From Mitsuokella jalaludinii DSM 13811 (GTDB taxonomy: Bacteria; Bacillota; Negativicutes; Selenomonadales; Selenomonadaceae), in contig NZ_JNKR01000020.1 in assembly GCF_000702905.1 (NCBI RefSeq), forward strand, positions 1 to 33,319: 33,319 nucleotides of DNA. The letters run 5' to 3'. Both the position numbers and the translations under genes were made by a program. Below the pieces are notes generated by a model. It was given only the letters and a program-made list of their open reading frames with translations, did no database searches and was not told where the DNA came from. Positions 1-33,319 of this stretch are shown here, piece after piece; position 1 is the stretch's first letter; every line of letters starts with the position of its first letter.

Positions 1-326
1 TGGCGAAACTTTGACTTACATGGATTTTCCTACTGAGCATTGGAGTCGGATCCGCACGAATAACTTGACGGAACGAGTAAATCGCGAGATACGCCGCCGT
101 ACAAGGGCCATTGGTGCATTTCCTGATGGCAACAGTGCGCTGATGCTCGTCTGTGCCAGACTTCGCCATGTTGCCGCCTCAGAATGGGGCTCAAAACGCT
201 ATATGGACATGGAGCATCTATTCAAGATGGAAATTGAGCAGCCAGCTGACGAGGAAAATCCATACATCTGATGCCGATATTTACTGGCGGATGAAATGAA
301 TTTGCGAAAGAATCTTGACACTACCC
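1..326 (+). mobile_element. Right end of an IS256-family insertion sequence
   Basis: The window opens inside this element. It contains the transposase C-terminus (stop at 271) and a short noncoding tail. The likely outer end is at about 326, in the motif TTGACACTACCC (315-326), which resembles the terminal repeats of IS256-family elements from memory. Immediately beyond it an open reading frame resumes without its own start, which supports this boundary. The left end and target duplication lie outside the window, so the exact border is inferred. Confidence 0.65.
2..271 (+). CDS. IS256-family transposase, C-terminal fragment (partial at window edge)
   Basis: The reading frame is open from the window edge to a stop at 271, so this is the last ~89 residues of a longer protein. 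The segment HWSRIRTNNLTERVNREIRR followed by a conserved RTRAIGAFPDG stretch is typical of the C-terminus of mutator-type (IS256) DDE transposases, just after the catalytic glutamate region. The protein would cut and join the ends of its own element. The catalytic DDE residues are upstream of the window, so integrity cannot be judged. A TTG at 11 is not a real start, because the frame continues upstream of it. Confidence 0.85.
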   Translation, partial: GETLTYMDFPTEHWSRIRTNNLTERVNREIRRRTRAIGAFPDGNSALMLVCARLRHVAASEWGSKRYMDMEHLFKMEIEQPADEENPYI

Positions 327-372
327 ATACATCCATGAATCAACGGATGATCAGATTGCAGCATTTTATGAA

Positions 373-1248
373 ATGCTTAAGATTTTTTGTTCATCCGGTA
401 TGGTAAGAGTATCAGAAGGTTCATTTTTTTCGACTAACTATAAAGTGAAAAATGAATATTTTACTACTATTTCCTTGTCGAATGAGGTGTCGCCTACTGT
501 TAATATCATAATAGATACTGAAAACGTAGATGAAACATATAGAGAGGGAGATTTATTAGACTCTGAAAGATACAAACAAAAGGATGTTTCATATAAGTGG
601 GAGGAAATAAAGGACTATTTTGTAACACTATCGTTATTGGATATGGAGTTGCTCCATGGTCAAGAGATTAATCGGTATGCTGTTAAAGATGATTCATTAT
701 TTACGGCTTGTGAGAATTTAGATATTGGGGCGATAAAATCTGCTATTCAAGATGGAGCTAATATATTCGCTTTAAATAAAGACGGAGAATCGCCAATTTA
801 TAAATGTGTGGAAGCAATACAAGATTTTTACTTAGATGAACTTGATGTCTTTGGAAAATCAGAACTAAAATCAAGGATATCAAAAATGAAAGAATGTATT
901 GATTATTTGATCAGTCAAGGGGCAGATATAAATTCATATGGATTTGGGTGCTTGTGTTCACCACTATGTGAATCTGAAGATATATGTGATGTAGGTGTCA
1001 TGGAGTTCCTGCTTAATCGAGGGGCAAATCCAAATTACAATACAAATTTTGAGGATATGTGTATTATGCGTGATGAATGGTATATTAAATCGTCAGTATT
1101 AAGCATGGTATCAGATTCGATTTCTGTTTATGGTGAGGAGTATAGTGAAGTTCAAGAGAAACTCCTATTGTCACATGGTGCTCAGATGTATATCGATGGA
1201 TTTAACCCGGAAACCGGAACTATGGAGGAAAACTATGTCAGAGTATAA
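373..1248 (+). CDS. Ankyrin-repeat protein, 5'-truncated by an IS256 insertion
   Basis: A 291-residue product is readable from ATG 373, but the same frame is open back to a stop at 316-318. The upstream codons (HESTDDQIAAFYEMLK) read like normal protein, so the native gene probably began further upstream and was cut by the IS256 element ending near 326. No convincing ribosome-binding site precedes 373. Ankyrin-like repeats are visible at about residues 107-139 (ending in DGANIF), 172-190 (ISQGADIN), 205-225 (LNRGANPNYN) and 258-273 (LLSHGAQ). Ankyrin repeats mediate protein-protein contacts; no enzymatic domain is seen. The gene overlaps the next one by 14 bp, so they were probably co-translated. 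Base composition is far more AT-rich than the housekeeping genes, suggesting transfer. A role as an immunity or effector-associated protein is only a guess. Confidence 0.7.
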   Translation: MLKIFCSSGMVRVSEGSFFSTNYKVKNEYFTTISLSNEVSPTVNIIIDTENVDETYREGDLLDSERYKQKDVSYKWEEIKDYFVTLSLLDMELLHGQEINRYAVKDDSLFTACENLDIGAIKSAIQDGANIFALNKDGESPIYKCVEAIQDFYLDELDVFGKSELKSRISKMKECIDYLISQGADINSYGFGCLCSPLCESEDICDVGVMEFLLNRGANPNYNTNFEDMCIMRDEWYIKSSVLSMVSDSISVYGEEYSEVQEKLLLSHGAQMYIDGFNPETGTMEENYVRV

Positions 1249-2221
1249 TATTGCTAGGGATGTGTTGGAATTTCGGCTGACTGGCTATCGTTATGGTCCA
1301 GACAGCTTTCCAATGGCAGCAGTTGAAATATATATCAACGGAGAGAACTTTAGAGAAAAAGTATGCAAGCAAGAACTTCCGTTTGCAAAGAGAGAAGGGA
1401 ATCCTGAAATAGCAGGACACGCTCCAATTACTCCGATGGACCTTTATCAGTCACTACACAATGATTATGCTGAGGAGGAATGCGTTTCAATTTTTGGGTG
1501 TGGCTGTGGGGTGATTGATTGTTGGCCATTAAATGTCGCTATTGAAGTAGGAAAAAATGTAGTAACCTGGTACGGATTCAATATGTATCATCGTAAGAAC
1601 TGGGATTATAGTGGCCTGGGGAGTTTTGTCTTTCGCAAACAACAATATTGGAGTGAAGTGGATAAGCTGCTTGAGCTTGAAGAGCAGGGAAAAATTTTGT
1701 TTAAGAACTTTTCTGTTTCTTTTGATGTAGAAAAAAATGGTTGGGTTAAAATGAATTTGCGCCTATCAGATGATCAATTCTATTTGCGTCTGTCCTATCT
1801 TTATTCGCCATTTGATGATATCCTTAAAATGATAAAGAACATTGAAAACGGCAGCACGGCTGAAGAAATTTACATTGATGAAGAAGGCGTTGGAGCGACA
1901 CTTTCAGTGCAATCTACAAGCAACTATCTTGAGTTGGATATATCCGTAGATGTTCATAATGCGGGTGATATACCAGATGATCATTATAAATGCAGAACTA
2001 AAAGAGAAGTATTCATATATGCTTTTCGTTGGGCTTTCATGGAACTGGAAGATGAAGGCTTTGACCCCAATTATTGGGACCAGCATGATGAAGGATATGA
2101 ATACGGCGAGGATGAAACTAACCCAAGGGAGACCAACACGTCTTTTTGGGAGGAACCATGGTTTGATTATCTGCAGAATGACATTGTAGATTATAATCCA
2201 TTTCAAATTTTGCATACCTGA
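1235..2221 (+). CDS. Hypothetical acidic protein, possible polymorphic-toxin immunity protein
   Basis: The product is 328 residues, starting at ATG 1235 behind a good GGAGG (1224-1228). An earlier in-frame start at 1130 would lie deep inside the upstream gene and is rejected. The protein is acidic, aromatic-rich and has no signal peptide or membrane segment. A cysteine cluster (C83, C89, C91, C96; GCGCGVIDCWP) is followed by VVTWYGFNMYHRKNW, resembling small families often found beside secreted-toxin or immunity genes; I do not recognise a named family. The C-terminus is very acidic and tryptophan/tyrosine-rich. It is translationally coupled (14-bp overlap) to the ankyrin gene and shares its AT-rich composition, so the pair is probably a remnant of an acquired cassette. 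Confidence 0.6.
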   Translation: MSEYNIARDVLEFRLTGYRYGPDSFPMAAVEIYINGENFREKVCKQELPFAKREGNPEIAGHAPITPMDLYQSLHNDYAEEECVSIFGCGCGVIDCWPLNVAIEVGKNVVTWYGFNMYHRKNWDYSGLGSFVFRKQQYWSEVDKLLELEEQGKILFKNFSVSFDVEKNGWVKMNLRLSDDQFYLRLSYLYSPFDDILKMIKNIENGSTAEEIYIDEEGVGATLSVQSTSNYLELDISVDVHNAGDIPDDHYKCRTKREVFIYAFRWAFMELEDEGFDPNYWDQHDEGYEYGEDETNPRETNTSFWEEPWFDYLQNDIVDYNPFQILHT

Positions 2222-2224
2222 AAA

Positions 2225-2256
2225 CCTTATAAGATAAGGCTCTATCAGATTTTTAA
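2225..2256 (+). terminator. Weak terminator-like hairpin
   Basis: CCTTAT (2225-2230) pairs with ATAAGG (2234-2239) around a 3-nt loop, four bases after the upstream stop codon. The T-run (2251-2255) lies about 11 bases beyond the stem, so termination would be inefficient. Confidence 0.3.
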
Positions 2257-2283
2257 GCATCTTTCTCGCATGAGGAGCGTGGA

Positions 2284-2453
2284 GTCAACTACCCACGACT
2301 GAAGTCGCGAGCTTGAGGGAATCTTGCGACACCTCAATTTGCTTAGATAGGCCAAGCTTACTGCACTCGCAGTCCTGCGAGATAGAGCAGAGGCTCGGCA
2401 ATTACCAAAGCCATTAACGTCCGCAAGTTGCCAAACGGACGGATGCAGTTGCA
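2284..2453 (-). ncRNA. Candidate omega RNA (reRNA) of TnpB copy A
   Basis: TnpB nucleases use a guide RNA made from the 3' end of the tnpB transcript through the element's right end into flanking DNA. Here about 170 noncoding bases after the tnpB stop are conserved with the second copy (roughly a dozen differences plus one length change). They keep two clear hairpins: CTCGCAG/CTGCGAG (near 2367-2383) and the terminal CGCGACTTCAGTCG-type palindrome near 2294-2309. In the terminal stem an A/G difference at 2295 keeps pairing (G-U versus G-C). The guide would come from bases just below 2284. The 5' end is not defined and probably overlaps the tnpB 3' end. Confidence 0.5.
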
Positions 2454-3722
2454 TCAATGCATGGATGCGAGCTTTGCTTTGGCTCGCGCTAGGATGTTCT
2501 TGGCCGCATTCACGTCGCGAATGTGGTGTATCCCACATTTCGGGCAGATCCACTCGCGGTCCTTGAGCGTCAGTTTCTCTTTGCCGCTCATGATATGGCC
2601 ACAAGCGTGGCAGGTTTGCGTCGTATTCCGCGGGTCGACGGTGACGAAGTTTTTGCCATACAGTGCGGCCTTATAGGTTAGCATACCAAGGAACATCCGC
2701 CAGCCGTTGTCTTGGATGCTCATGGCCAAGGCATGGTTCTTCAGCAAGTTCCGGCTCCGCAGTTCTTCTGCTGCGACCAGATCGTGGTTCTTGATCAGTA
2801 TCGTGGAAGTGCGGTGCAGGAAATCCTTGCGGCGTTGCATGACTTGTGCCGTGAGCTTGGCGACGAGCAGACGCTGTTTTTCGACGTTCTTTGCCTCGCG
2901 GAGTGGGCGATGCTCTTTCTTGGCACGGACAATCCGACGGCTCAGTTTGCGCTGTGCGTTGGCCAGTCGGCGTTTCTGCCTGCGGTAATAGCGCGGATTG
3001 GCCAAGATTTCGCCGTTCGAGTCGGCATAGAAGTTCTCGATGTTCAGGTCGATGCCAATCTCTGCCTTTGTTTTCGGACAGGCTTTTATGAATGGCTCAT
3101 CGGAGCCAAGCTGGAATGACGCAAAATAGCGGTGCAGACCGTCCTTTGTGATGGTAATTGTACCGATGCGGACTTCCTTCATGGCGAAAAGCCGGCCCAG
3201 CATTTTACATGAGCCTTGGAAGCGGATGCGCTTGAGCTTGGGCAGCATCAGGTGATGCTTGTCGAGGAAGCGGGCATTGCTGGTGAACAGAGAGATCTTC
3301 GTGTCCTTGCCGTAATGTGGATTCGTCTGATACGACTCGACAGACGATTTCTTATGGAAGTTCGGCACGCCAGCATGATGAACGGTGCGGAACTGCTTCC
3401 AAGCACGCTGGTAGTTCTGCCGTGCATTGGCAATGCTAAGTGAATCGATGTCACTGTGGCGAAGCCACGGATAACGGTCTTTCAGCGCCGTTACAGTGCT
3501 GATTCGTTCGCGCAGTGCCTCGATGCGCTTCTCGATGAAGTCGATGTAGATGCTCCGTTTGCCGAACTGAGCAATCTCCTTGTTCACAGCGACATGTTCA
3601 TTGTAGACGCAGCGCGCCGCATCCGCATTGCGCTGGATCGTCTTTTTCTGTTGCTGGCTGGGGTAGATGCGGACTTTCAGGCCGTAATGGTAGGCATAAT
3701 CCACCATCTTCTTCTGTTCCAT
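2454..3722 (-). CDS. tnpB: RNA-guided endonuclease TnpB (IS200/IS605 OrfB family)
   Basis: The product is 422 residues. The start at 3722 (MEQKKMVDYAYHYG) sits behind an excellent AAGGAGGTGAATGAA. A start 18 codons upstream would lie before this ribosome-binding site and is rejected. The N-terminal helix-turn-helix domain spans about 10-60. The RuvC-like nuclease has candidate catalytic residues D225 (GIDLN), E319 (VAAEEL) and D403 (IRDVNAAKN). A four-cysteine zinc ribbon is present at C371/C374 and C393/C396. All key residues are retained, so an active RNA-guided nuclease that helps the element persist at its target site is plausible. It has its own promoter and no adjacent TnpA. It is an ancestor-type relative of Cas12 by family knowledge. 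Confidence 0.93.
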   Translation of the reverse strand: MEQKKMVDYAYHYGLKVRIYPSQQQKKTIQRNADAARCVYNEHVAVNKEIAQFGKRSIYIDFIEKRIEALRERISTVTALKDRYPWLRHSDIDSLSIANARQNYQRAWKQFRTVHHAGVPNFHKKSSVESYQTNPHYGKDTKISLFTSNARFLDKHHLMLPKLKRIRFQGSCKMLGRLFAMKEVRIGTITITKDGLHRYFASFQLGSDEPFIKACPKTKAEIGIDLNIENFYADSNGEILANPRYYRRQKRRLANAQRKLSRRIVRAKKEHRPLREAKNVEKQRLLVAKLTAQVMQRRKDFLHRTSTILIKNHDLVAAEELRSRNLLKNHALAMSIQDNGWRMFLGMLTYKAALYGKNFVTVDPRNTTQTCHACGHIMSGKEKLTLKDREWICPKCGIHHIRDVNAAKNILARAKAKLASMH

Positions 3723-3746
3723 TTCATTCACCTCCTTCCTGCTTCT

Positions 3747-3776
3747 ATTATACAAGTACATGTTCATCAGCTTCAA
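3747..3776 (-). promoter_or_regulatory. Promoter for tnpB
   Basis: Read on the minus strand, TTGAAG (3771-3776) and a perfect TATAAT (3747-3752) are separated by 18 bases. The -10 lies about 25 bases upstream of the tnpB start and its strong Shine-Dalgarno. Confidence 0.6.
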
Positions 3777-3862
3777 GCACGAGAAATTCTAGGGGCGCTC
3801 ATATCCTTTCTGAAGTGAGAAGATTATTGGCCGTATCGTATTTTTATTGAATCGCTGAATCA

Positions 3863-3916
3863 AAAAACGAGACTGTAGACCAGATGCTATTGCATCCAGG
3901 GTACAGTCTCGTTTTT
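3863..3916 (-). terminator. Intrinsic terminator after the CNNM/CBS gene
   Basis: A long stem is formed by AAAACGAGACTGTA and TACAGTCTCGTTTT, with T-rich sequence on either side, so it can work in both directions. On the minus strand it lies 13 bases after the stop codon at 3930. It also insulates that gene from the TnpB element. Confidence 0.85.
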
Positions 3917-3929
3917 GTTTTAAGGTGAT

Positions 3930-5276
3930 TTACTTGTCGCTGTCTTTTTTGGCATCAGACGGCGCTGCGGGGGCAGCGTCGGTGTTTTCCTCGCGGGTGA
4001 CGAGGATTTTGTCGATGCGGGCGCGGTCCATGTCGACGACTTCGAAGGTGAAGCCGTTCCACTCACATTTCTCGGCGACTTTTGGGATGTAGCCGAAGTA
4101 GGAGGTCAAGAAGCCGCCCATGGTCTGGTAGTGGTCGTGGTCTTCGTCGGGGAGCTCGGCGATGTCGAAGCGCTCTTTGAAGTCGTCGATGGAGCAGAGG
4201 CCGTCGACGTACCAGGAGTGCTCGTCGCGTGGGGTGAACTGGATTGGGTCAGGCTCGACGTTGGACATGGAGTCGCCGATGATCTCCTGCAGGATGTCGC
4301 TGAGGGTGATGAAGCCGACGACGCCGCCGTACTCGTCGAGGACCATGGCCTCGTGGATGCCGGTATCGCGGAACTTGGCGAGCACGCGGAAGGTCTCCAT
4401 CGAGCGCGGCACGAACATGGGCTTGCGGATGTACTGCGCGAGGTCGAGGGACTTGCGCTCGAGCGAGGCGTTGAGGAGGTCCTTGGCGTAGAGCACGCCG
4501 CAGAAGTCGTCGAGATTCTCGCGGCCGACGGGGAAGACGTTCTGCGGATGTTCGCGGATGATGCGCAGGTTGTGGCGCAGGGAGTCGGTCAGGTCGAGCC
4601 AGAGCATCTGGGTGCGCGGCGTCATCAGGGAGTAGGCGGTCTGGTCGCTCATGTGGAAGATGCGGTCGACCATGGCCTGCTCGGATTTCTCGAAGGTGCC
4701 GTCCTCGGTGCCCTGCTCGATGAGGTCCTTGACCTCGTCTTCGGTGACGGTGTCCTCGACGTGCGGGTTGATGCCGAGCAGCAGGAGGACGCCGCCCGCA
4801 GAGCCGGACAGGAAGCGGATGAAGGGGCGCGCGAGGCGCGTAAGCCTTGCGACGATGCCATGGTACTTCATGAGCATGTGCTCAGGGTTCTGTGCGGCCT
4901 TCTTCTTCGGCAGGAATTCGCTGAAGAGCAGGGTGATGTACGTCACGACGACGATGCTGAAGAGCATGGCAATCGTCGTGGCATGCGGCAGGAAGGCGAT
5001 GAAGCTGGCGAGGTACGGCGCGATGAAGGCGCCGGTGCAGATGCCCATGAGGATGCCAGTCAGCGTGATGCCGACCTGGACGAGCGAGAGCGGCGCTTCG
5101 ACGTTCTCGAGCAGGCCGAGCGCTGCCTCGGCATCTTGATTGCCGTCTTCGGCGAGCTTCTCGAGCCGTCCGCGGTGGCTCTCTGTGAGGGCCGTCTCGA
5201 TGAGCGAGAAAAAGGCGTTAGCCAGCAGCAGTAACAGGAGTAAGACGAGCAATAGGCCCGCGTCAGTATTGTCCAA
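3930..5276 (-). CDS. CNNM/CorC-type membrane protein with CBS domain pair (hemolysin C-like)
   Basis: The product is 448 residues. The N-terminal DUF21/CNNM transmembrane domain (about 1-170) begins with a leucine-rich helix and has further hydrophobic segments near 65-90, 98-118 and 155-170. It is followed by two CBS domains (about 205-325; second CBS with MVLDEYGGVVGFITLSDILQ) and a C-terminal CorC_HlyC domain (about 350-430; DHYQTMGGFLTSYFGYIP). Family members are inner-membrane proteins linked to Mg2+/Co2+ efflux or homeostasis, with CBS domains sensing adenine nucleotides; the substrate here is not shown. The best start in this frame is TTG at 5276, preceded at a rather long distance by AAAGGA. 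It has its own promoter and terminator, so it appears monocistronic. The C-terminal tail is low-complexity (Ala/Asp/Lys). Confidence 0.88.
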   Translation of the reverse strand: MDNTDAGLLLVLLLLLLLANAFFSLIETALTESHRGRLEKLAEDGNQDAEAALGLLENVEAPLSLVQVGITLTGILMGICTGAFIAPYLASFIAFLPHATTIAMLFSIVVVTYITLLFSEFLPKKKAAQNPEHMLMKYHGIVARLTRLARPFIRFLSGSAGGVLLLLGINPHVEDTVTEDEVKDLIEQGTEDGTFEKSEQAMVDRIFHMSDQTAYSLMTPRTQMLWLDLTDSLRHNLRIIREHPQNVFPVGRENLDDFCGVLYAKDLLNASLERKSLDLAQYIRKPMFVPRSMETFRVLAKFRDTGIHEAMVLDEYGGVVGFITLSDILQEIIGDSMSNVEPDPIQFTPRDEHSWYVDGLCSIDDFKERFDIAELPDEDHDHYQTMGGFLTSYFGYIPKVAEKCEWNGFTFEVVDMDRARIDKILVTREENTDAAPAAPSDAKKDSDK

Positions 5277-5331
5277 AAATGATACACATCCTTTGCTAAA
5301 GATACATACAGATTGTAAACTATTTTCCTAT

Positions 5332-5360
5332 AATATAGCATAACCATGGCGTTTTGTCAC
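5332..5360 (-). promoter_or_regulatory. Promoter for the CNNM/CBS gene
   Basis: On the minus strand GTGACA (5355-5360) is separated by 17 bases from TATATT (5332-5337). A TG one base before the -10 gives an extended -10. It lies about 55 bases upstream of the TTG start. Confidence 0.6.
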
Positions 5361-5385
5361 ATATGGCGCGGGCTCTGGGAGTGGC

Positions 5386-5970
5386 TCAGTCGTCATACCA
5401 GGGGCCGTTGCCGATGACGATGCCGCCGTGCAGGGTCACGGGCGTGGAGCTGCCGACTTTTGTCGGCATGCGCGTCGTGAGCTTGTAGGGCGTGTCGACA
5501 AGCCAGGCCGTCACGAGCACCGCGTCGTCCTTGATCTTGCGGTAGGCCTTGCGGTCGAGCTCGGCCGTGTAGACCTCGCTCTTGTGGGCGGCGACGGAAG
5601 AGCTCGTCAGGGCCTGCGTGAAGGCCATGCCGTCCGACCGGCGGTAGAGCGTCTTGCCATTCTTGTCGAGGATGGCGAAGTCGTAGACCTGCCCGTCGCG
5701 GTGGGCGACGGAGTAGTCGCTGTCGCCGTCATTCGTGACTTTTAGCTCCATGACGAGCCGGCCGTGCTTCTCCTCGACGGTCAGCTCCTCGACAATGCTG
5801 TCGAAGCTGAAGGCCGCGTACGACGGCACAATCTCGCTGCTGTGCGAGCCCGAGGTCGGGAACGAGACGCCGATGCCCGTGCCAAACGAGGCAGAGGCCA
5901 CCGGCATCGCGGACAGGGGGACAGCAAAGGCTGTGAGCGCAAGCGCGGGGATAAGGGCATATCTTTTCAT
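5386..5970 (-). CDS. Secreted BsuPI-domain protein (putative proteinase inhibitor)
   Basis: The product is 194 residues from ATG 5970, chosen because CAGGAG lies just upstream and a clean signal peptide follows (MKRYALIPALALTAFAVPLS, ending near SASA, residues 25-28). A longer reading frame upstream has no ribosome-binding site. The mature part carries a BsuPI-type beta-sandwich: a LVMELKVTNDGDSDY strand, VYDFAILDKNGKTLYRRSDG, then MAFTQALTSSSVAAHKSEVY. These are typical of the intracellular proteinase inhibitor family of Bacillus, here in an exported form. The protein would act outside the cytoplasmic membrane; its target protease is unknown. It is divergent from the ureide operon and has its own promoter. 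Confidence 0.75.
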   Translation of the reverse strand: MKRYALIPALALTAFAVPLSAMPVASASFGTGIGVSFPTSGSHSSEIVPSYAAFSFDSIVEELTVEEKHGRLVMELKVTNDGDSDYSVAHRDGQVYDFAILDKNGKTLYRRSDGMAFTQALTSSSVAAHKSEVYTAELDRKAYRKIKDDAVLVTAWLVDTPYKLTTRMPTKVGSSTPVTLHGGIVIGNGPWYDD

Positions 5971-6021
5971 GGTAATCACTCCTGATTCTGTCAGTCGTTC
6001 TAGATTGGTATCGTTGGTTCT

Positions 6022-6295: not shown

Positions 6296-7534
6296 ATGAA
6301 AGCAGATGCAGCACAATTGAATGATTGGCTAATGAGAATCGATACCTTCAATGCAACGCCTGGAGAAGGTACAACTCGAGCCGTTTATACAAAGGAGTTC
6401 TATCGGGCTCGCGAATATTTAAAGAAGGAAATGCAAGATCTCGGCCTTGAGATCCATGAGGATTGTGTCGGCAATATATATGGAGAATATAAAGGATGTC
6501 ATCCAGAACGTCCGCCTGTCTGGACCGGTTCACATATCGATACGGTTCCGCATGGTGGGCGCTATGATGGAATGGCCGGCGTATTTGCAGCTCTGGAAGT
6601 TATCCGCATGATGAAAAGTGATGGCTATCAGCCGAAACGGAGTATCTTCGTCAATGCTTATGCTGGAGAGGAAATGAGTCGTTTCGGGATGTGCTGTATT
6701 GGCAGTCGCGCGATTGTCGGTCGCATTCATCAGCAAGATTTAAAGGACGCAAGAAATATGGCTGGTGAGAGCATCTTTGATGTCCTCAGCCATGATGGTT
6801 TTGAGCCAGAGCGATTCAATCGAGACTTTTCTACAAAGCCGAGGGTCCACGCAAGTCTTGAGCTGCATATCGAGCAAAACAGGATCTTGCAGGACAAGGG
6901 CATCTCTGTTGGTATTGTCACTGGCATTTGTGCACCGACAAATCTGCGATGCGAGATTCATGGCATTCAATCGCATGCCGGCGGCACGAGTATGGAGGAT
7001 CGCCGCGATGCCTTTATGGCGTCAGCTGAGATTGCTCTGGCACTCGAGCACTTAGCGAAAGCCTCAGATAGTGAATACATCACGGGAACAGTCGGCGCGA
7101 TGAAATTGGACCCTGGCGCAGCAAATGTCATTCCGGGGCAAGCGAATTTCTCCATCGATATCCGCTCCATCTCGGCACAGGATAAGGATGACTTGGTCGA
7201 GGCATTGCAGGAAAAGATTGATGAAATCACAAGGAACCGCGGTGTTACCTATCAACTGGAACAGCTGAATAACGATACACCGTACATCTGCAGTCCGCGC
7301 ATCCGAGAACTCTTGCATGAAAGTGCAAAAGAACTGGAGCTTCCTGTACTCGATATGATCAGTGGTGCTTATCATGACAGCCTGATGTTGGGTGACATCA
7401 CAGATGCAGCGATGATCTTCATCCCCTGTAAAGATGGCATCAGTCATGACCGGAAAGAATCGATTGATATGGATGATCTTGCTAAGGGCACAGACCTTTT
7501 AGCGGCCACCTTACGCCGCCTTAGTGAAGAATAA
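6296..7534 (+). CDS. M20-family amidohydrolase, allantoate/ureidoglycolate amidohydrolase-like (first copy)
   Basis: The product is 412 residues behind AGGAGG with 9-base spacing. It belongs to the dimetal M20/allantoate amidohydrolase group, which removes CO2 and ammonia from ureido acids in the cytoplasm. Metal-ligand positions are all visible: H80 (GSHIDT), D91 (GRYDGMAG), E126 (AGEEMSRFG), H191 (ELHIEQ) and H384 (DGISHD). A dimerisation/substrate lid domain carries SHAGGTSM (226-233). Compared with the second M20 copy and E. coli AllC it is divergent: EQN for EQG, HAGGTSM for HAGTTPM, and GAYHDS for GAGHDA. A different ureido substrate is therefore likely, perhaps ureidoglycolate. It is the first gene of the operon. 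Confidence 0.8.
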   Translation: MKADAAQLNDWLMRIDTFNATPGEGTTRAVYTKEFYRAREYLKKEMQDLGLEIHEDCVGNIYGEYKGCHPERPPVWTGSHIDTVPHGGRYDGMAGVFAALEVIRMMKSDGYQPKRSIFVNAYAGEEMSRFGMCCIGSRAIVGRIHQQDLKDARNMAGESIFDVLSHDGFEPERFNRDFSTKPRVHASLELHIEQNRILQDKGISVGIVTGICAPTNLRCEIHGIQSHAGGTSMEDRRDAFMASAEIALALEHLAKASDSEYITGTVGAMKLDPGAANVIPGQANFSIDIRSISAQDKDDLVEALQEKIDEITRNRGVTYQLEQLNNDTPYICSPRIRELLHESAKELELPVLDMISGAYHDSLMLGDITDAAMIFIPCKDGISHDRKESIDMDDLAKGTDLLAATLRRLSEE

Positions 7535-7573
7535 GGATAGGATATTCTGTATTAGGATAGGAGAGAAGACATT

Positions 7574-8734
7574 ATGGCAAAGAAGAAGATTTGCATTATC
7601 GGCGGCGGTATTTCTGGTACGGCTCTTGGTTATAATCTGAGCCTCTATGATGATGCAGAAGTCACGCTTTATGAAAAAGGCCGCATCGGTGCTGGCACGA
7701 CATCGAAATCAGCGGGTACGGTATGCCTGTTCGATGATTCCCTGAATAATCGCTATTGGGATGTCCGCCTTTATGGTTTTGAGACATACTGTAAGATGGA
7801 GAAGGAAAAAAGGGGATCGGCTGGATTTGACAAGACGGGCACGCTGGTCTGTGCATTGGATGAAAAAGACGAAAAACGCATCAAGACAGGTATTGCACTG
7901 GCAAAATCCGCAGGTTACACGGGTGAATACATCACGGATAAAGACAGAATCAAGAAGATTCTTCCGATGATTGATCCGGATTCCATTATCGGTGCAGGCT
8001 ATACGGCAGATGATGGGTACTTCGATGGTACGATGATTTCCAATAATTTTGCCAGCAAGATGGAAGCGAATGGCGCAACCGTCATCATCGGTGTTGGTGT
8101 TACGGATATCAAGGTAGAAGGTGGAGCAGCTGTTGGCATTACGACGTCGGAAGGCAAACAGGAAGCTTATGATGTCATCGTGGACTGCACGGGGCCGTGG
8201 AGCCGCTTCACGGGCAAGATGGTCGACCTTGAAGTGCCAATCTGGCACACGAAGGCAGAAGCATTCTTCATGGCACCATCTGAAAAGCTCGACTATGTAT
8301 TCCCCATCCTGAAATTCCCGGCATTCTATGCGCTGCGCGCCGGCAACAACATCTTCATCTGTAAATCGCATCTGTCGATGGACCTGGACAATCCAATGCA
8401 TGCGGGCCAGTGGGACCCGGATAAACTGCCGGAACGCGGCGGCACAGATGATTATTTCATTGAGTTCCTGTTCGAGCAGATGGAAAAGAATGTTCCTGGC
8501 TTGGTCGATGCAGGCCTGAGTTCATCGTGGCTGTCTTATCGTGCAGAGCCACGCGATTTCCTGCCAATCATTGGTGACACGCCGGTCAAGAACTATCTCC
8601 TGGCCACGGGCTATGGCGGAAATGGTGTCATCGAGGCACCGGCAGTCAGCCGTGATCTGGCAAAATACATCATGCGAGGCGAAAGCACATTGCTCCTCGA
8701 AGAATGGGCATTCTCGAGATTGTTGAAGAAATGA
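7574..8734 (+). CDS. FAD-dependent DAO-family oxidoreductase, likely ETF-linked
   Basis: The product is 386 residues behind GGATAGGAGAG. The N-terminal FAD-binding motif is GGGISG (10-15); a DAO-fold C-terminus contains ATGYGGNGVIEAPAVSRDLA. The family includes sarcosine and dimethylglycine dehydrogenases, which pass electrons to electron-transfer flavoprotein, as well as glycine and D-amino-acid oxidases. Here etfB starts 12 bases downstream and etfA follows, strongly suggesting ETF is the redox partner. The histidine that carries covalent FAD in dimethylglycine dehydrogenase (TxWHxAG) is replaced (TTSKSAG), so FAD is probably noncovalent. The substrate is unknown. Candidates from context are ureidoglycine or ureidoglycolate (to oxalurate), or a glyoxylate-derived amine. 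Confidence 0.8.
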   Translation: MAKKKICIIGGGISGTALGYNLSLYDDAEVTLYEKGRIGAGTTSKSAGTVCLFDDSLNNRYWDVRLYGFETYCKMEKEKRGSAGFDKTGTLVCALDEKDEKRIKTGIALAKSAGYTGEYITDKDRIKKILPMIDPDSIIGAGYTADDGYFDGTMISNNFASKMEANGATVIIGVGVTDIKVEGGAAVGITTSEGKQEAYDVIVDCTGPWSRFTGKMVDLEVPIWHTKAEAFFMAPSEKLDYVFPILKFPAFYALRAGNNIFICKSHLSMDLDNPMHAGQWDPDKLPERGGTDDYFIEFLFEQMEKNVPGLVDAGLSSSWLSYRAEPRDFLPIIGDTPVKNYLLATGYGGNGVIEAPAVSRDLAKYIMRGESTLLLEEWAFSRLLKK

Positions 8735-8746
8735 GGCGGATGACGC

Positions 8747-9529
8747 ATGAAGATAGCAATCTGTATAAAACATGTTCCCGTCAGTGAAGATGTAGAAATC
8801 GATCCGGTTACGCATAGTGTCCGTCGTATCGATGCAACGTGCGATATGAACCCCTGTGATCTGAATGCGATGGAGATGGCTGCTCAGCTCAAGAAAGCAA
8901 CGGATAGCAGTATCGATGTCTACACGATGGGGCCGGATGGTGCAGCGGCATCCTTGAAGAAGTGTCTAGCCCTTGGGGCAGATGAGGCGTATCTCCTGAG
9001 CGACCGCAGCTTTGCCGGTCGTGATACACTCGGCACGGCTCGTGTACTTGCCGATTTTGTCAAACGCAAATCATACGACATCGTTTTCACGGGAGCGGAA
9101 TCCAGTGATGGTGCAACCGGGCAGGTTGGTGCTATGCTCGCTGAACTTCTCGGCATGCCGGATGTCGCCGATGCCGTATCCGTAGAGCCGGATGGAGACG
9201 GTGCACTGCTTATCGGCAAAAAGGTGCAGCAGGGGACGTTGAAAATCAAGGCAAGAGGACCAGTCCTCTTAGCGGTACCATTTGGCTGCAATGAACCGAA
9301 ACTCCCGACACTGCGTGCGCAGATGAAAGCGAACCACAAAGAGATTCATGTCTTGACGGGGAAGGACTGCGATCCATCCGTCCTCGAGAACTTGGAAGTC
9401 AAGTCTGTCGTCACGGATGTATATCCAGCGCCGGAGGCAAATAAGCAGGCGAAGGAGATTACAGGTACTCCGAAGGAAATCGCCATAAAGATACAGAAAC
9501 TTTTGGAAGGAAGTGAGCAGGATGTCTGA
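8747..9529 (+). CDS. etfB: Electron transfer flavoprotein, beta subunit
   Basis: The product is 260 residues, the normal EtfB/FixA length, starting MKIAICIKHVP. Typical features are the DPVTHSVRRIDATCDMNPCD region, the ALGADEAYLL segment, and the nucleotide-binding SSDGATGQVGAMLAELLG (about 119-136). EtfB forms a heterodimer with EtfA and shuttles single electrons between a flavoprotein dehydrogenase and a quinone reductase or acyl-CoA dehydrogenase-type partner. Placement between the DAO flavoprotein and etfA indicates a dedicated pair rather than a general fatty-acid ETF. Whether it can bifurcate electrons (second FAD/NADH site) cannot be told by eye. The stop overlaps etfA by 8 bases. Confidence 0.92.
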   Translation: MKIAICIKHVPVSEDVEIDPVTHSVRRIDATCDMNPCDLNAMEMAAQLKKATDSSIDVYTMGPDGAAASLKKCLALGADEAYLLSDRSFAGRDTLGTARVLADFVKRKSYDIVFTGAESSDGATGQVGAMLAELLGMPDVADAVSVEPDGDGALLIGKKVQQGTLKIKARGPVLLAVPFGCNEPKLPTLRAQMKANHKEIHVLTGKDCDPSVLENLEVKSVVTDVYPAPEANKQAKEITGTPKEIAIKIQKLLEGSEQDV

Positions 9530-10493
9530 GATTGTTGTTTATGCACAGATCACCAAGAACGGTCTGAATCCGGAGACAGCCGAGCTCGTCACTGCCGCAC
9601 AGGAAGTCGCAAAAGTTTCTGGAGAAACCATCACCGTTCTCGCCGCTGATGACCAGGCACCTTTGTATGAAGATGCACTGAAGCTGGATGGCGTTTCGGA
9701 TGTTATTCTCCTGCATACGATCGGCATTGGTGAAATGCAGACGGATGTGCTGAGCGAGGTCATGGCAGATGTCATCACTTCCCGTGATGTGTCGACGATT
9801 CTTGCGCCGTCGGAGCATCAGGCCAGAGCTTTGCTTTCGCGTATTGCTGTAAAGCTCGACGCGGGCATGACAGCGGCCTGCAAAGAACTGAAGCCAGAAG
9901 CCGTAGATGGCAAGGTAGTCGTCCATCAGATCAAGAGCTCATTTGGCAGTCAGGGACTCGTTACGTGTGATATCACGACAAAGCCGGCAATCATCACGTT
10001 GATCCCAGGCTCCTACGAAGCAGCACCCCAGACAGGGACGCCGAAGATCCAGGTCATCGAAAAGGAAAATCTGACATCGGCTCTTGAGGTTCTGGACTTT
10101 GAAGAAAGCCAGTCGGCAGGTAACCTTCTGGGGGCAAGGCGCGTGGTCTGCGTTGGCAAAGGCGCCATAGAAGGAGAAAACTTCAGTCTGGCAAAATCTT
10201 ATGCACAGAAAATCAATGCTGCATTTGCTGGCAGCCGTCCGATGGCCGATCAGCACTGGATTGATTTTGAGGCACAGATTGGTGAATCCGGTACGGTTAT
10301 CCGACCAGAAGCCTGCCTAATCTGTGGCGTTTCCGGTGCCATCCAGTTCACGGAGGGAATCAAGGGAGATCCTTTGGTCATTGCCATCAACAAAGATCCA
10401 AAAGCCCCAATTTTCGGTTTTGCTGATTACAAAGTCGTTGCCGACATGAAGGATATCTTACCAGAGCTCCTGGCGGCAGCCGACCAAAAATAA
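9522..10493 (+). CDS. etfA: Electron transfer flavoprotein, alpha subunit
   Basis: The product is 323 residues from ATG 9522, overlapping etfB by 8 bases, so translation is coupled. GTG 9513 is an alternative start three codons earlier. The C-terminal FAD domain has GSR (237-239), IGESG (253-257), CGVSGAIQF (268-276), AINKDPKAPIF and ADYKVVAD. One family position differs: the motif normally reads SGAIQH, with the histidine contacting the flavin near C2=O, but here it is Phe276. This could shift the flavin potential or semiquinone stability. It partners with EtfB and probably with the DAO flavoprotein. Confidence 0.92.
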   Translation: MSEIVVYAQITKNGLNPETAELVTAAQEVAKVSGETITVLAADDQAPLYEDALKLDGVSDVILLHTIGIGEMQTDVLSEVMADVITSRDVSTILAPSEHQARALLSRIAVKLDAGMTAACKELKPEAVDGKVVVHQIKSSFGSQGLVTCDITTKPAIITLIPGSYEAAPQTGTPKIQVIEKENLTSALEVLDFEESQSAGNLLGARRVVCVGKGAIEGENFSLAKSYAQKINAAFAGSRPMADQHWIDFEAQIGESGTVIRPEACLICGVSGAIQFTEGIKGDPLVIAINKDPKAPIFGFADYKVVADMKDILPELLAAADQK

Positions 10494-10532
10494 ATTTCAA
10501 ACTTTTGTTTTCTAGGAAAGGAAGTATTTGAT

Positions 10533-11315
10533 ATGAGTTACTTGAATGGTCAGACGGGTTACCGTAAAGACATCCTGACGAATCGTTCTGTCATTGGCAA
10601 TGGCTATGTCATCCTGGAACCGGACGGACTCGTCAAGAACGTTGTACCGGGCTATTCGGATTGTGATGTCACGATCCTCGGCACGCCACAGATGGGCGCT
10701 ACGTTTGCTGATTATCTTGTCACGGCACATGCAGGCGGCAAGAACACGGGCATTGGTGGCAATGGCATCGAGTCGTTCCTCTATGTCATAAGTGGATCGG
10801 TGAGCGTTAAGAATGCAGATAAAGAAGCAGAATTGACGGAAGGCGGCTACATCTTCAGTCCGGCAGATAAGCCATTCACGTTCGAGAACAAGAGCGGTAA
10901 AGATGCCAGACTCTATGTCTATCGCCGTCGCTATATCCCGCTTGAAGGAACGAGCGCTCACACAGTAGTCGGCAACATCAATGATGTTCCTTACATGGAC
11001 TATGAGGGCATGAAGAATGCACAGAGCAAAGATTTCTTGCCGTCGGCAACGGATCTTGGCTTTGATATGAACATGCACATCCTCAAGTTCGAGCCGGGTG
11101 CATCGCATGGCTACGCAGAGACGCATTTGCAGCAGCATGGCATGCTGTTCCTCCAAGGCAAGGGCATGTATCTCTTGGATGATCAGTGGATCCCGCTCAA
11201 GAAGGGCGATTATGTATTCATGGATTCTTACTGCCCGCAGGGCTGCTACGCCGTTGGCACGGAAGACTATATCTACATCTATTCCAAAGACTGCAACCGT
11301 GATGTAGAACTGTGA
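10533..11315 (+). CDS. allE: (S)-ureidoglycine aminohydrolase
   Basis: The product is 260 residues, the same length as E. coli AllE (261), and highly similar throughout: MSYLNGQTGYRKDIL at the start, LVKNVVPGYSDCDVTILGTP, GIESFLYVISG, LGFDMNMHILKFEPGASHGY and a C-terminal IYSKDCNRDVEL. It is a bicupin manganese enzyme that converts (S)-ureidoglycine to (S)-ureidoglycolate and ammonia. The metal-binding residues of the second cupin are visible as E196, H198 and H202 (ETHLQQH). This is the most diagnostic gene of the cluster and ties it to allantoin/allantoate breakdown. It is followed by a terminator-like hairpin, so genes downstream may be expressed at lower level. Confidence 0.95.
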   Translation: MSYLNGQTGYRKDILTNRSVIGNGYVILEPDGLVKNVVPGYSDCDVTILGTPQMGATFADYLVTAHAGGKNTGIGGNGIESFLYVISGSVSVKNADKEAELTEGGYIFSPADKPFTFENKSGKDARLYVYRRRYIPLEGTSAHTVVGNINDVPYMDYEGMKNAQSKDFLPSATDLGFDMNMHILKFEPGASHGYAETHLQQHGMLFLQGKGMYLLDDQWIPLKKGDYVFMDSYCPQGCYAVGTEDYIYIYSKDCNRDVEL

Positions 11316-11365
11316 TGCCAGTAATCGGCAGCCCGGTCTTTTAACCGCATAGAAAGAGGACAAGG

Positions 11366-11411
11366 GAGTCTGAACTTGTCGGAGCATTTCCGGCTTGTTC
11401 AGGCTCTTTTT
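11366..11411 (+). terminator. Terminator-like hairpin inside the ureide operon
   Basis: GAGTCTGAAC (11366-11375) pairs with GTTCAGGCTC (11397-11406) with one T-G opposition, and an inner TCGGA/TCCGG-type stem closes the loop. A TTTTT run follows directly at 11407-11411. It lies 50 bases after allE and 40 bases before the transporter start; no clear promoter was seen between them. It may act as partial attenuation between the two halves of the operon. Confidence 0.7.
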
Positions 11412-11450
11412 GTTTAAACGAACGAAAGCTTCGGGAAAGGGAGCGATATT

Positions 11451-12755
11451 ATGAAGGGCAAATCAGGGCTTTCTTTGACCATGTGGATCATCATTGCCAC
11501 AGTTGTCGGCATTATCTTTGGTTCTGTCGTTGGCCCATGGGCAACAAACTTGAAATTCATTGGTGATATCTTTATCAACTTGATCCAGATGTCAGTTGTC
11601 GTACTGGTCATGACAGCCGTTGCCGGGGCCATTGCTGGACTCGGTGGGAATGGCTCTGGGAAAATGGGCTTGGTTGTATTCGCGAGCATTGTCGTCTTTA
11701 CCTTGTTGTCTGCTTTCCTTGGAGTTGGCTTAGGCCTTTTGGTCCAGCCGGGACTTGGTATCGATATTGGCACCACGGCTTCTACTGCGCAGATAGCAGA
11801 TACTTCTATCACGAAGACACTAGTAGGTTTTGTGCCGACGAATATTTTCTCATCGATGGCATCGGGCGCCATGGTTCCATGTATCCTCTTTTCTATCTTC
11901 TTTGGTGCATGCACAGGCATCTATCAGCGTGACCATCATACTACCATCGTTACGGATTTCCTGACGGCTGTCAATGGCGTCATCTTGGAGATCATCAAGG
12001 CTGTCATGAAGGTCGCTCCAATCGGCATCTTCTGCCTGCTGGCAAATGTAGCTGGTGGTACGGGATTTGCCGTCATCATGCCAATGCTCAAGTTCCTTGG
12101 CTGCCTGCTCATCGGTGATGTGATCCAGTTCCTTGTTTACTGTCCTGCTGTTGCGGCTATCTGTGGCGTCAATCCGATGAGAATGCCGAGCAAATATGGA
12201 AAGATGTCGATGATGGCACTGACGACAACATCGTCGGCAATCTGCCTGCCAACCAAGATGGAAGACATGGTAACAAAGTTTGGTGTCGATCGCAAAGTCA
12301 CAGACTTCGTTGGTCCAATCACGATGTCGATGAATAGCTGCGGTGCCGTCCAGTGCTATGTCCTCGCCATCCTCTTCATGAGCCAGTCCACGGGAATCAC
12401 GCTCTCTCCGATGCAGTTCGGCATGGCTATCTTGCTGGCCGTCCTGATGTGCATGGGAACAATCGTTGTCCCAGGTGGCATGATTGTCGTCTACACCTTC
12501 TTCGCTACAACGATGGGACTTCCGACCGAATCCGTTGCCATCCTCATTGGTATTGACTGGTTCTCGGGCATGTTCCGCACACTGATGAATGTCGATGTCG
12601 ATGTCCTGGTTGGCATGCTCACCAGCAAGGCCCTTGGAGTATTCAACAAAGGCGTCTACAACGATGAGACAGCTGCCTCTTATATCGATGCTATAACAAA
12701 TCCTGGACCGACCTGTGGCAAGTCCGGAAAAATAAAGGAGAATCGCAATGGATAA
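11451..12755 (+). CDS. Divergent DAACS-family (glutamate/dicarboxylate-type) symporter
   Basis: The product is 434 residues with about eight hydrophobic segments and the re-entrant hairpins of the Na+/H+-dicarboxylate (GltP/DctA) family. Hairpin 1 is TTTSSAICLPTKMED (258-272), hairpin 2 is VVPGGMIVV (339-347), and TM8 reads DWFSGMFRTLMNVDVD (369-384). Aligned from memory with GltPh, D394, which binds the substrate amino group, is Gly373. R397, which binds the carboxylate, is kept as Arg376, and N401 is kept as Asn380. The TM7 NMDGT motif has become SMNSC (293-297). This argues for a carboxylate that is not an amino acid, such as allantoate or another ureido acid. The gene overlaps the next hydrolase by 8 bases. 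Confidence 0.78.
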   Translation: MKGKSGLSLTMWIIIATVVGIIFGSVVGPWATNLKFIGDIFINLIQMSVVVLVMTAVAGAIAGLGGNGSGKMGLVVFASIVVFTLLSAFLGVGLGLLVQPGLGIDIGTTASTAQIADTSITKTLVGFVPTNIFSSMASGAMVPCILFSIFFGACTGIYQRDHHTTIVTDFLTAVNGVILEIIKAVMKVAPIGIFCLLANVAGGTGFAVIMPMLKFLGCLLIGDVIQFLVYCPAVAAICGVNPMRMPSKYGKMSMMALTTTSSAICLPTKMEDMVTKFGVDRKVTDFVGPITMSMNSCGAVQCYVLAILFMSQSTGITLSPMQFGMAILLAVLMCMGTIVVPGGMIVVYTFFATTMGLPTESVAILIGIDWFSGMFRTLMNVDVDVLVGMLTSKALGVFNKGVYNDETAASYIDAITNPGPTCGKSGKIKENRNG

Positions 12756-13980
12756 GAAAATCAGTACGGCACGCATCCGCAAGAACCTGGAAGACCTGAA
12801 AGCCTTTACGGCAACACCGGGCAAGGGATGCACGCGTATGCCGTTTTCCAGGGAAACAAAAGCTGCGGCAGAATATCTGAAAGCAGCGATGAAAGACGCT
12901 GGCCTTGATGTGGTGGAAGACTGTGTCGGCAATATCATCGGCACACGCAAGGGCAAAGACAGCAGCCTGCCGGCCATCGTCTGCGGCTCACATTATGATT
13001 CTGTATACAATGGCGGCGATTACGATGGTATCGCTGGCGTGGTGGTAGCGATTGAGCTGGCGCGTATCTTGCAGGAAGAAAATGCGATGCTCGATACGGA
13101 TTTCGTCGTTGTAGCCTTCATGGATGAAGAGGGATGTCGCTTTGGTACGGGCTATTTTGGTTCGTATTCCATCCTTGGTGAGATGGATGTGGAACAGTGC
13201 AAGCGCTTCAAGGACCGGGATGATATCAGTGTTTATGACGCTATGCAGCGTTATGGCCTGGACCCAGAGAAGGTTACGGAGGCTGCCTGGGACAAGAATC
13301 GCATTGGCCACTATATCGAGATGCACATTGAACAGGGGCCTGTCCTCGATGCAGAGAAACTGGAGTTTGGCCTTGTCAACTGTATCGTTGGCATTCAACG
13401 TTACTTATTCACAGTACATGGCCGTTCGGACCATGCAGGGACGACGCCGATGCACATGCGCAAAGATGCTGTCGATATTGCGACGAAAGTCATCAGCAAG
13501 ATCGGGGACCTGGCGCGCGCTGAAGAGCCAGGTACCGTTGCGACGGTCGGATTTGTCCATGCCGTCCCTGGTGGCATGAATGTCGTTGCTCAGGAGATGT
13601 CCTTCAGTGTCGATATCCGCTCGACAAAGAACGAGATCATCGACAAGATTGCCACGAAGATACAGGCGCTTTTGGAAGAGGAAACGTCGAAATGTGGTGC
13701 ATCGTATTCGTACGAGACAAAACTCAGCATCACGCCTGTCGATATGAGCAGTGCAATGCTGGACATGATGGAAGATTCCTGCAAGAAACATGGCTACCAG
13801 GCCATCCGCATGCCAAGTGGCGCTGGTCATGACGCACTGGCCATCGGCCAGCATCATGATACCGTCATGCTCTTTGTGCCGAGCAAAGATGGACGCAGTC
13901 ATTGCCAGGAGGAGCATACGGAGTATGAGTCCTTCGGCAAGGCGACAGAAGTCTTATACGATTTGATCCATACGCTGTAA
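12748..13980 (+). CDS. M20-family amidohydrolase, allantoate amidohydrolase-like (second copy)
   Basis: The product is 410 residues. It is the more canonical of the two M20 hydrolases here: H82 (GSHYDSV), D93 (DYDGIAG), E128 (MDEEGCRFG), H193 (EMHIEQGP) and H385 (DGRSHC) are the expected dimetal ligands, with DHAGTTPM (228-235) and MPSGAGHDA (355-363) as in allantoate amidohydrolase and N-carbamoyl-L-amino-acid hydrolase. It would hydrolyse allantoate to ureidoglycine, CO2 and ammonia, although an N-carbamoyl amino acid substrate cannot be excluded. Its start overlaps the transporter stop by 8 bases and the allantoinase gene follows closely, so the three are co-translated or nearly so. Confidence 0.82.
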   Translation: MDKKISTARIRKNLEDLKAFTATPGKGCTRMPFSRETKAAAEYLKAAMKDAGLDVVEDCVGNIIGTRKGKDSSLPAIVCGSHYDSVYNGGDYDGIAGVVVAIELARILQEENAMLDTDFVVVAFMDEEGCRFGTGYFGSYSILGEMDVEQCKRFKDRDDISVYDAMQRYGLDPEKVTEAAWDKNRIGHYIEMHIEQGPVLDAEKLEFGLVNCIVGIQRYLFTVHGRSDHAGTTPMHMRKDAVDIATKVISKIGDLARAEEPGTVATVGFVHAVPGGMNVVAQEMSFSVDIRSTKNEIIDKIATKIQALLEEETSKCGASYSYETKLSITPVDMSSAMLDMMEDSCKKHGYQAIRMPSGAGHDALAIGQHHDTVMLFVPSKDGRSHCQEEHTEYESFGKATEVLYDLIHTL

Positions 13981-14028
13981 GGCGTGACAGCTGCTAGTAT
14001 AGCTGTGATTATCATGGGGGCGAAGATG

Positions 14029-15396: not shown

Positions 15397-15411
15397 TGGG
15401 GGTGCTTTACC

Positions 15412-16767: not shown

Positions 16768-16805
16768 CAATCTACCATGAATTACCAGAAAAAGGAGTGG
16801 TCTCC

Positions 16806-18155: not shown

Positions 18156-18184
18156 ACCTATGAAATAAAAGAATCCACTGGAGT

Positions 18185-19870: not shown

Positions 19871-19875
19871 TACCG

Positions 19876-32988: not shown

Positions 32989-33159
32989 GTCAACTACCCG
33001 CGACTGAAGTCGCGAGCTTGAGGGAATCTTTCGATACCTCAATTTGCTTAGATAGGCCAGGCTTACTGCATTCGCAGTCTTGCGAGGTACAGCAGAGGTC
33101 CGGTAATTACCAAAGCCATTAGCGTCCGCAAGTTGCCAAACGGACAAGATAGGTTTGCA
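32989..33159 (-). ncRNA. Candidate omega RNA (reRNA) of TnpB copy B
   Basis: The noncoding right-end region matches that of copy A, with the terminal palindrome CGCGACTGAAGTCGCG (33000-33015) here perfectly self-complementary. The guide would be read from the flanking radical-SAM coding sequence just below 32989. The RNA's 5' end is not defined. Confidence 0.45.
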
Positions 33160-33319
33160 TCAATGCATGGATACGAGCTTTGCTTTGGCTCGCGCTAGGA
33201 TGTTTTTGGCCGCATTCACGTCGCGAATGTGGTGTATCCCACATTTCGGGCAGATCCACTCGCGGTCCTTGAGCGTCAGTTTCTCTTTGCCGCTCATGAT
33301 ATGGCCACAAGCGTGGCAG
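33160..33319 (-). CDS. tnpB: TnpB C-terminus, copy B (partial at window edge)
   Basis: The last ~52 codons of a TnpB are identical to copy A except for very few substitutions (for example Val for Ala near the C-terminus, LVSMH versus LASMH). The second zinc-ribbon pair (CPKC) and the catalytic Asp region IRDVNAAKNIL are present. The N-terminus and start lie outside the window, so whether the gene is intact is unknown. Confidence 0.88.
   Translation of the reverse strand, partial: CHACGHIMSGKEKLTLKDREWICPKCGIHHIRDVNAAKNILARAKAKLVSMH

What the first reader, a model, noticed from the sequence alone, without database searches (positions are those of the whole stretch)
2284..3800. Apparently active orphan TnpB with a conserved candidate omega RNA
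All RuvC and zinc residues are intact, promoter and Shine-Dalgarno are strong, and about 170 noncoding bases plus hairpins are shared with a second copy. That is what an RNA-guided homing nuclease unit should look like. TnpA is missing, so mobility depends on help in trans.
Basis: partly seen in the sequence, partly recalled or inferred. Interest (0 to 1): 0.5.

Follow-up and report, generated by a model that had tools for sequence, protein, structure and literature searches.

The report
IS605-type TnpB copy that lost TnpA
This is a worn copy of a common bacterial jumping gene that has lost its transposase and one functional end but still carries an intact-looking RNA-guided DNA-cutting enzyme and its guide RNA; it is a new example of a well-known kind of system.

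Summary
Window 2284-3846 (minus strand) derives from an IS605-group element of a Mitsuokella genome. It encodes full-length TnpB (2454-3722, 422 aa; RuvC and zinc residues match ISDra2 TnpB) and an omega RNA (2284-2445). Ten aligned sequences (this copy, the second copy, eight relatives) show strong covariation in that RNA (28 of 54 pairs changed on both sides; 0 of 500 shuffles), with the 3'-terminal pseudoknot known from ISDra2. Five in-genome right ends fix the boundary at 2284, so the guide starts at 2283. Left flanks read TTCAA in 7 of 9 copies, the predicted target-adjacent motif. Three close relatives carry a divergent tnpA; here it is reduced to a 21-nt remnant, part of which now stands as a -35-like hexamer. 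'Mobility with help in trans' is doubtful: the left-end hairpin, stable in five of six relatives folded, is lost here. tnpB dN/dS against two relatives is 0.12-0.13. Best reading: a probably immobile, tnpA-deleted IS605 derivative that may still make a functional RNA-guided nuclease, its natural target being the element-free allele of its own site. Expression and cleavage are untested. New member of a known kind.

The parts
2284..3846 (-). whole element, 1563 nt, tnpA-deleted derivative of an IS605-group element
   Evidence: right end from five copies; left end from aligned copies and from an M. multacida locus without the element, whose homology to the left flank stops at 3847
2454..3722 (-). 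tnpB CDS, 422 aa; RuvC D225, E319, D403; zinc cysteines C371, C374, C393, C396
   Evidence: residue numbers of ISDra2 from PMC10097598 passages
2284..2445 (-). omega RNA scaffold (5' end chosen from the conserved block, not fixed; the RNA may begin inside tnpB)
   Evidence: RNA fold z -4.13, covariation
2427..2430 (-). 5' strand of the pseudoknot, CAAC, in the loop of the first hairpin
   Evidence: pairs with 2286-2289 in 13 of 13 sequences; predicted by RNAalifold on 14 sequences
2284..2289 (-). GTTGAC, 3' end of the omega RNA scaffold, 3' strand of the pseudoknot, predicted right cleavage site
2264..2283 (-). predicted guide, TCCACGCTCCTCATGCGAGA
   Evidence: first bases after the conserved right end; guide length of 16-20 nt from ISDra2 (PMC8612924 passages)
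3847..3851 (-). TTCAA, predicted left cleavage site and target-adjacent motif
   Evidence: TTCAA in 7 of 9 left ends
3787..3846 (-). decayed left end; hairpin lost
   Evidence: fold comparisons, alignment
3758..3778 (-). 21-nt remnant of tnpA (20 of 21 identical to L032), holding the -35-like hexamer TTGAAG
3747..3776 (-). promoter-like site TTGAAG-18-TATAAT
32989..33319 (-). second copy of the subfamily, right end and tnpB 3' part, cut by the contig end; lies in a radical-SAM-like gene

Best explanation
A tnpA-deleted, probably immobile copy derived from an IS605-group transposon of Mitsuokella, in which the nuclease module is preserved. tnpB is transcribed from a promoter partly rebuilt from a tnpA remnant (inferred). 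Its 3' end and the right end give an omega RNA with several stems and a pseudoknot joining the first loop to the terminal GUUGAC (structure supported by covariation). The 16-20 nt after 2284 act as guide, and TnpB cuts double-stranded DNA that carries TTCAA followed by the guide match (inferred from ISDra2 and from the flanks). The natural target is the element-free allele of the same locus, so the unit would restore or protect itself through break repair (inferred). It most likely no longer excises, because tnpA and the left-end hairpin are gone (inferred from sequence).
For: TnpB full length and catalytic residues intact. Ends fixed by several copies and by an M. multacida locus without the element that is 98.5% identical over the 1.5 kb of left flank given and stops at the left end. 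Three close relatives with tnpA, 91-93% TnpB identity. Both flanks of one filled M. multacida site map to one locus without an element in the window's genome. Omega RNA: 28 of 54 pairs with both-side changes, 86.8% of cells paired against 34.0-38.8% when slid. Pseudoknot formed in 13 of 13. Left-end hairpin loss. dN/dS 0.12 and 0.13.
Against: No expression or cleavage data. The dN/dS branch (27 nonsynonymous, 53 synonymous) includes time before tnpA loss, so selection after the loss is not shown. TTCAA comes from left flanks of copies, not from a cleavage screen; one copy reads CTCAA and one TTAGG, and the M. multacida locus matching this site reads CTCAA. No element-free allele with both flanks of this site was found: in M. 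multacida the left flank runs into a helicase-nuclease gene that lies elsewhere in this assembly. No target with TTCAA plus guide elsewhere in the genus. The promoter match is not above chance as a count. The pseudoknot's covariation rests on one pair and probably one event.
Confidence: 0.75

Rival explanations
1. A dead relic: the copy is decaying, and tnpB is intact only because the loss of tnpA is recent or because gene conversion from other copies keeps it alike.
For: Left end and tnpA are already lost. An 80-nt patch of tnpB is identical to the in-genome copies that cover it (80 of 80 in C20R and C3, 79 of 79 in C37, 61 of 61 in C31), while neighbouring stretches are about 89-95%, as conversion could leave.
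Against: tnpB differs from relatives by about 10% of bases with few protein changes; the right end keeps its RNA helices and folds at least as well as the other copy. The same patch is near identical in other species too (79-80 of 80), so it may simply be conserved.
Confidence: 0.25
2. A naturally TnpB-only element of the IS1341 group, never dependent on its own tnpA.
For: Only tnpB is present between the ends.
Against: A 21-nt tnpA remnant, and tnpA in the three close relatives; PMC9956272 passages treat copies with more than 20 bp of such sequence as decayed IS605.
Confidence: 0.05
3. Mobile in trans: TnpA of sister copies still moves it.
For: Sister left ends with tnpA sequence in the same genome and an intact right end.
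Against: Left-end hairpin lost; single copy of this form; the in-genome tnpA pieces are cut by contig ends and one has a stop.
Confidence: 0.12
4. A domesticated guide-directed system kept for a host or island function.
For: Nuclease and omega RNA preserved while the transposition parts decayed.
Against: The M. multacida counterpart of the left flank lacks the element, and the third genome of the genus gave no match to the flanks or to this TnpB at E 1e-100; guides differ between copies.
Confidence: 0.08

Closest known systems
ISDra2 (IS605 group) TnpB and its omega/reRNA, Deinococcus radiodurans
   Same: TnpB aligned over residues 15-413 (E 5e-45, entry 8h1j) with matching RuvC and zinc residues; omega RNA from tnpB 3' end plus right end, with a pseudoknot between its 3'-terminal bases and an upstream stretch (passages)
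   Different: predicted motif TTCAA, not TTGAT; conserved scaffold block about 162 nt against 116; at position -3 the pseudoknot pair is G-C here, C-G in ISDra2; tnpA lost
ISLjo5-type elements of Lactobacillaceae (IS605 group, divergent tnpA; name from the annotation of one record)
   Same: TnpB 48-58% identical in the records listed; homologous omega RNA ending GTTGAC in 13 of 14 plasmid loci fetched; divergent tnpA annotated in 9 of those 14 (the gene table is incomplete)
   Different: left flank TTTAA at two L. salivarius sites, and TTTTAA by eye in three other loci, rather than TTCAA
Mitsuokella multacida DSM 20544 copies (L032/L049, L033/L050)
   Same: TnpB 92-93% identical, same right end, TTCAA or CTCAA left flank
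   Different: carry tnpA and a stable left-end hairpin; tnpB of L033 is frameshifted
IS1341 group (TnpB-only elements)
   Same: only tnpB between the ends
   Different: a tnpA remnant points to decay from IS605

Membership tests
TnpB, RNA-guided nuclease | OrfB_IS605 and TNB domains, RuvC D-E-D triad | tested here: met
TnpB, RNA-guided nuclease | CXXC...CXXC zinc finger | tested here: met
TnpB, RNA-guided nuclease | omega RNA from tnpB 3' end and right end, with pseudoknot | tested here: met
   as sequence and structure only; no RNA data
TnpB, RNA-guided nuclease | guided double-strand cleavage next to a motif | not testable with these tools
   motif TTCAA only predicted
IS605 group of IS200/IS605 (intact element) | tnpB between defined left and right ends at a short target motif, no target duplication | tested here: met
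   in the three copies with both flanks printed (window, L032, L033) the motif is not repeated at the right side
IS605 group of IS200/IS605 (intact element) | Y1 tnpA divergent from tnpB | tested here: not met
   deleted in this copy; present in L032, L033, L034. Filed here as a derivative, not an intact member
IS605 group of IS200/IS605 (intact element) | subterminal hairpins at both ends | tested here: not met
   right hairpin present, left hairpin lost
IS1341 group | TnpB-only without tnpA-derived sequence (PMC9956272 passages: more than 20 bp counts as decay) | tested here: not met
   21-nt remnant, just over that threshold
Nuclease-dead TnpB regulators (TldR) | loss of RuvC catalytic residues (recalled) | tested here: not met
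   triad intact
Rfam RNA families | match to a described family | tested here: not met
   none for window 1-6000 at E 0.1; in 7 relatives at E 1 none over the omega RNA on its own strand, one opposite-strand match below its gathering score in L042

The most novel reading that the evidence does not exclude
After losing tnpA and the left end, this TnpB and its omega RNA have been kept by selection as a stand-alone, locus-bound RNA-guided nuclease that protects its site (or the neighbouring genes) against element-free alleles, a step towards domestication of an active nuclease.
Probability: 0.1. Interest if true: 0.5.

Novelty: new member of a known kind. Interest (0 to 1): 0.22.

Why it matters
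It adds a well-delimited TnpB-omega RNA subfamily of Mitsuokella, its relatives and Lactobacillaceae with a predicted TTCAA motif (TTTAA in some relatives), no Rfam match in the searches made, and a clean case in which the transposition parts decayed while the nuclease parts did not. That gives a testable case for whether TnpB can persist without its transposase.

Tried and rejected
Site history, not resolved: in M. multacida a gene with UvrD and PD-(D/E)XK domains (addA-like) follows the left flank directly. In the window's genome that gene ends on contig C31, followed by other sequence and the C-terminal part of a Mutator-family transposase at the contig end. The window contig also begins with the C-terminal part of such a transposase. 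Both edges hold the same end of the transposase, so one copy cannot join them; whether an inserted gene island or a rearrangement separates the two genes stays open.

A first guess of the left end at 3861 (TTGAT next to a terminator-like repeat) was dropped once the left ends of relatives were aligned. still used that start for the window copy, so its stretch holds about 15 flank bases; one search used matched 65-nt stretches.

Self-targeting: TTCAA plus guide, up to 3 mismatches, matches only the element's own right end in three genomes of the genus.

Rows dropped: the omega RNA regex was given 22 loci and the window; L035, L043 and L086 gave nothing (L035 ends in GCTGAC). 14 sequences went into A2 (near-duplicates left out) and 10 into A3 (L038, L039, L040 and L079 left out for long insertions or poor alignment). 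On A2 RNAalifold gave 9 of 22 pairs with both-side changes. Helices 6, 7, 8 and 10 of A3 are poorly supported (37.5-68.2% paired). L033 was left out of dN/dS because of its frameshift.

Low-value scans: phages hold only relatives under 60% identity (71 records at E 1e-40). No paper in the searched library holds TnpB, TTCAA and TAM together or TnpB with Mitsuokella; the 3 papers were seen as a listing and not opened. No structure prediction was run.

Full report
What is there. On the minus strand of window 2284-3846 lies one copy derived from an IS605-group element. tnpB runs from the ATG at 3722 to the stop ending at 2454, 422 codons, with AAGGAGG eight bases before the ATG. Pfam finds HTH_OrfB_IS605, OrfB_IS605 and Cas12f1-like_TNB, each over its cut-off; NCBIfam guided_TnpB scores 277.9 against a cut-off of 100. 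The best solved structures by sequence are an AI-designed nuclease (E 9.5e-48) and then TnpB entries 8h1j and 8bf8 (E 5e-45 and 6e-45), which I know to be ISDra2. Counting the start Met, D225, E319 and D403 align with D191, E278 and D361 of ISDra2, and C371, C374, C393 and C396 with its four zinc cysteines (alignment, whose chain numbers run two higher; ISDra2 numbers from passages of PMC10097598). These seven residues are invariant in the six sequences aligned, the window copy and five relatives.

The ends. Five right ends in the same genome (window copy, right edge of the window, contigs C3, C31, C37) share GGGTAGTTGAC and diverge from the next base on. The left end is at 3846. Left flanks read TTCAA in the window copy, C12, C34, L033, L034, L051 and the mini-element L103, CTCAA in L032 and TTAGG in C50: 7 of 9. 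The next base is T in the seven, so TTCAA and TTCAAT cannot be told apart. Independently, the M. multacida counterpart of the left flank, which has no element, is 98.5% identical over the 1.5 kb given and loses homology right after this point; it reads CTCAA there. For the L033 copy of M. multacida both flanks map, in order, to one locus without an element in the window's genome; the intergenic part is too diverged to align the junction base by base.

tnpA. The closest relatives, L032 and L033 (M. multacida DSM 20544 by the record titles) and L034, have 91-93% TnpB identity and a divergent tnpA between left end and tnpB. In the window copy this stretch is gone except for a 21-nt remnant at 3758-3778. 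The TTGAAG in it now stands 18 bases before the retained TATAAT. Left ends of the subfamily with tnpA sequence are on contigs C12, C34 and C50 of the genome, all cut by contig ends; the tnpA piece on C34 has a stop.

Left-end decay. Folded as single-stranded DNA over 65 nt, the left ends of L032 (also given a second time as L049), L034 and L045 have a stable hairpin (z -3.05, -3.06, -2.91), L044 a weaker one (z -0.90), and the window copy none (z +1.01). Longer stretches gave +1.96 for the window copy, -2.19 to -2.57 for five other copies and -0.52 for L044. The window left end matches relatives at 39-41 of 48-49 aligned bases plus indels; the relatives match C12 at 53-55 of 55, or 48 of 49 for L051. 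Y1 transposases recognise such hairpins (established knowledge), so movement in trans is unlikely, though not excluded.

The guide RNA. The 162 nt ending at 2284 fold as RNA with z -4.13 (0 of 200 shuffles as stable); the copy at 32989-33150 has z -3.54 (0 of 200). The two differ at 17 of 162 positions, 8 of 100 paired and 9 of 62 unpaired; all seven altered pairs are standard in the window copy, four of seven in the other (the structure came from the window copy, which favours it). Relatives with TnpB 48-60% identical share the RNA. On ten sequences 86.8% of cells pair, 28 of 54 pairs change on both sides and none of 500 shuffles reaches any of the five measures; sliding drops pairing to 34.0-38.8%. 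The shuffles do not correct for relatedness. RNAalifold on 14 sequences, given no structure, joined the first hairpin loop to the terminal GUUG. This is the pseudoknot that PMC10097598 (passages) describes for ISDra2, where -5U to -3C pair with -103A to -105G. With three more sequences (L079 and two units of L035) it forms in 13 of 13: one pair is A-U in ten, G-U in L079 and G-C in both L035 units. That is one compensatory change, probably one event, and the small helix is weak by itself (20 of 500 shuffles reach its covariation score, 214 of 500 its number of changed pairs). No Rfam family matched on the RNA's strand.

A covariance model of the RNA, trained on the ten sequences, finds matches in 25 of 189 genomes of the family, against 8 of 189 with TnpB at E 1e-100. 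Of the 29 new loci, 9 hold a tnpB match at E 1e-5; many of the others lie at contig edges or score weakly. L103 is a 319-nt element with left hairpin and omega RNA and no tnpB or tnpA match.

Selection. Against L032 and L034 dN/dS of tnpB is 0.12 and 0.13, and 0.18 between those two. On the branch to the window copy 27 nonsynonymous and 53 synonymous changes were counted. This shows constraint in the family; how much fell after the loss of tnpA cannot be told.

Function. Following ISDra2 (PMC8612924 passages), TnpB with its right-end RNA would cut DNA bearing the motif and the guide match, which is the element-free allele. That step is inferred. TTCAA with the guide has no match within 3 mismatches in three genomes of the genus other than its own right end.

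Neighbourhood. The left flank is the 3' side of a gene with CNNM, CBS and CorC_HlyC domains, with a terminator-like repeat. In M. multacida the same flank abuts a gene with UvrD and PD-(D/E)XK domains; in the window's genome that gene ends on contig C31, and the link between the two places is unresolved. On the other side lie a gene of no Pfam match and an ankyrin-repeat gene. Nothing found ties the element to these genes.

Verdict. The unit is a decayed IS605 derivative with its nuclease part preserved, an ordinary kind of thing with some clear and testable details.

Noticed in passing
L103, element at about 1336-1654 (G093:C75): A 319-nt mini-element with TTCAA left flank, left hairpin and a full omega RNA but no tnpB or tnpA match in the locus; a possible trans-guided RNA.
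   Followed up: partly
L035 2769-2883 and 2920-3046 (G125:C5): Two omega-RNA-like units in tandem after one tnpB, both ending GCTGAC with a matching change in the pseudoknot loop (GGCAGC).
   Followed up: partly
window 32638-33021: A radical-SAM-like gene (Pfam just under cut-off) beside an ArsR-type regulator gene is cut by the second copy; in a relative (L056) the reading frame runs across the corresponding point.
   Followed up: partly
window about 2526-2605: An 80-nt stretch of tnpB is identical or one base off in all copies compared, synonymous sites included, while neighbouring stretches differ by about 5-11%.
   Followed up: partly
window 1-2283, L089, L068, L070: Similar motifs (GCTTATCTTATAAGG and near variants) occur here, beside the addA-like gene on C31 and at two places in M. 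multacida; seen by eye.
   Followed up: no
window 11-271 and L091 3472-3714: The contig starts in, and contig C31 ends in, the C-terminal part of a Mutator-family transposase, so the assembly breaks at repeats.
   Followed up: partly
L042 782-1382: A ROOL RNA lies upstream of the tnpB relative on a Ligilactobacillus salivarius plasmid (Rfam, E 6e-55).
   Followed up: no
window 6296-19885: M20 peptidases, amidohydrolases, a flavoprotein, an FAD oxidoreductase, a dicarboxylate symporter and a purine-type permease beside a PucR-type regulator suggest purine or hydantoin use.
   Followed up: no
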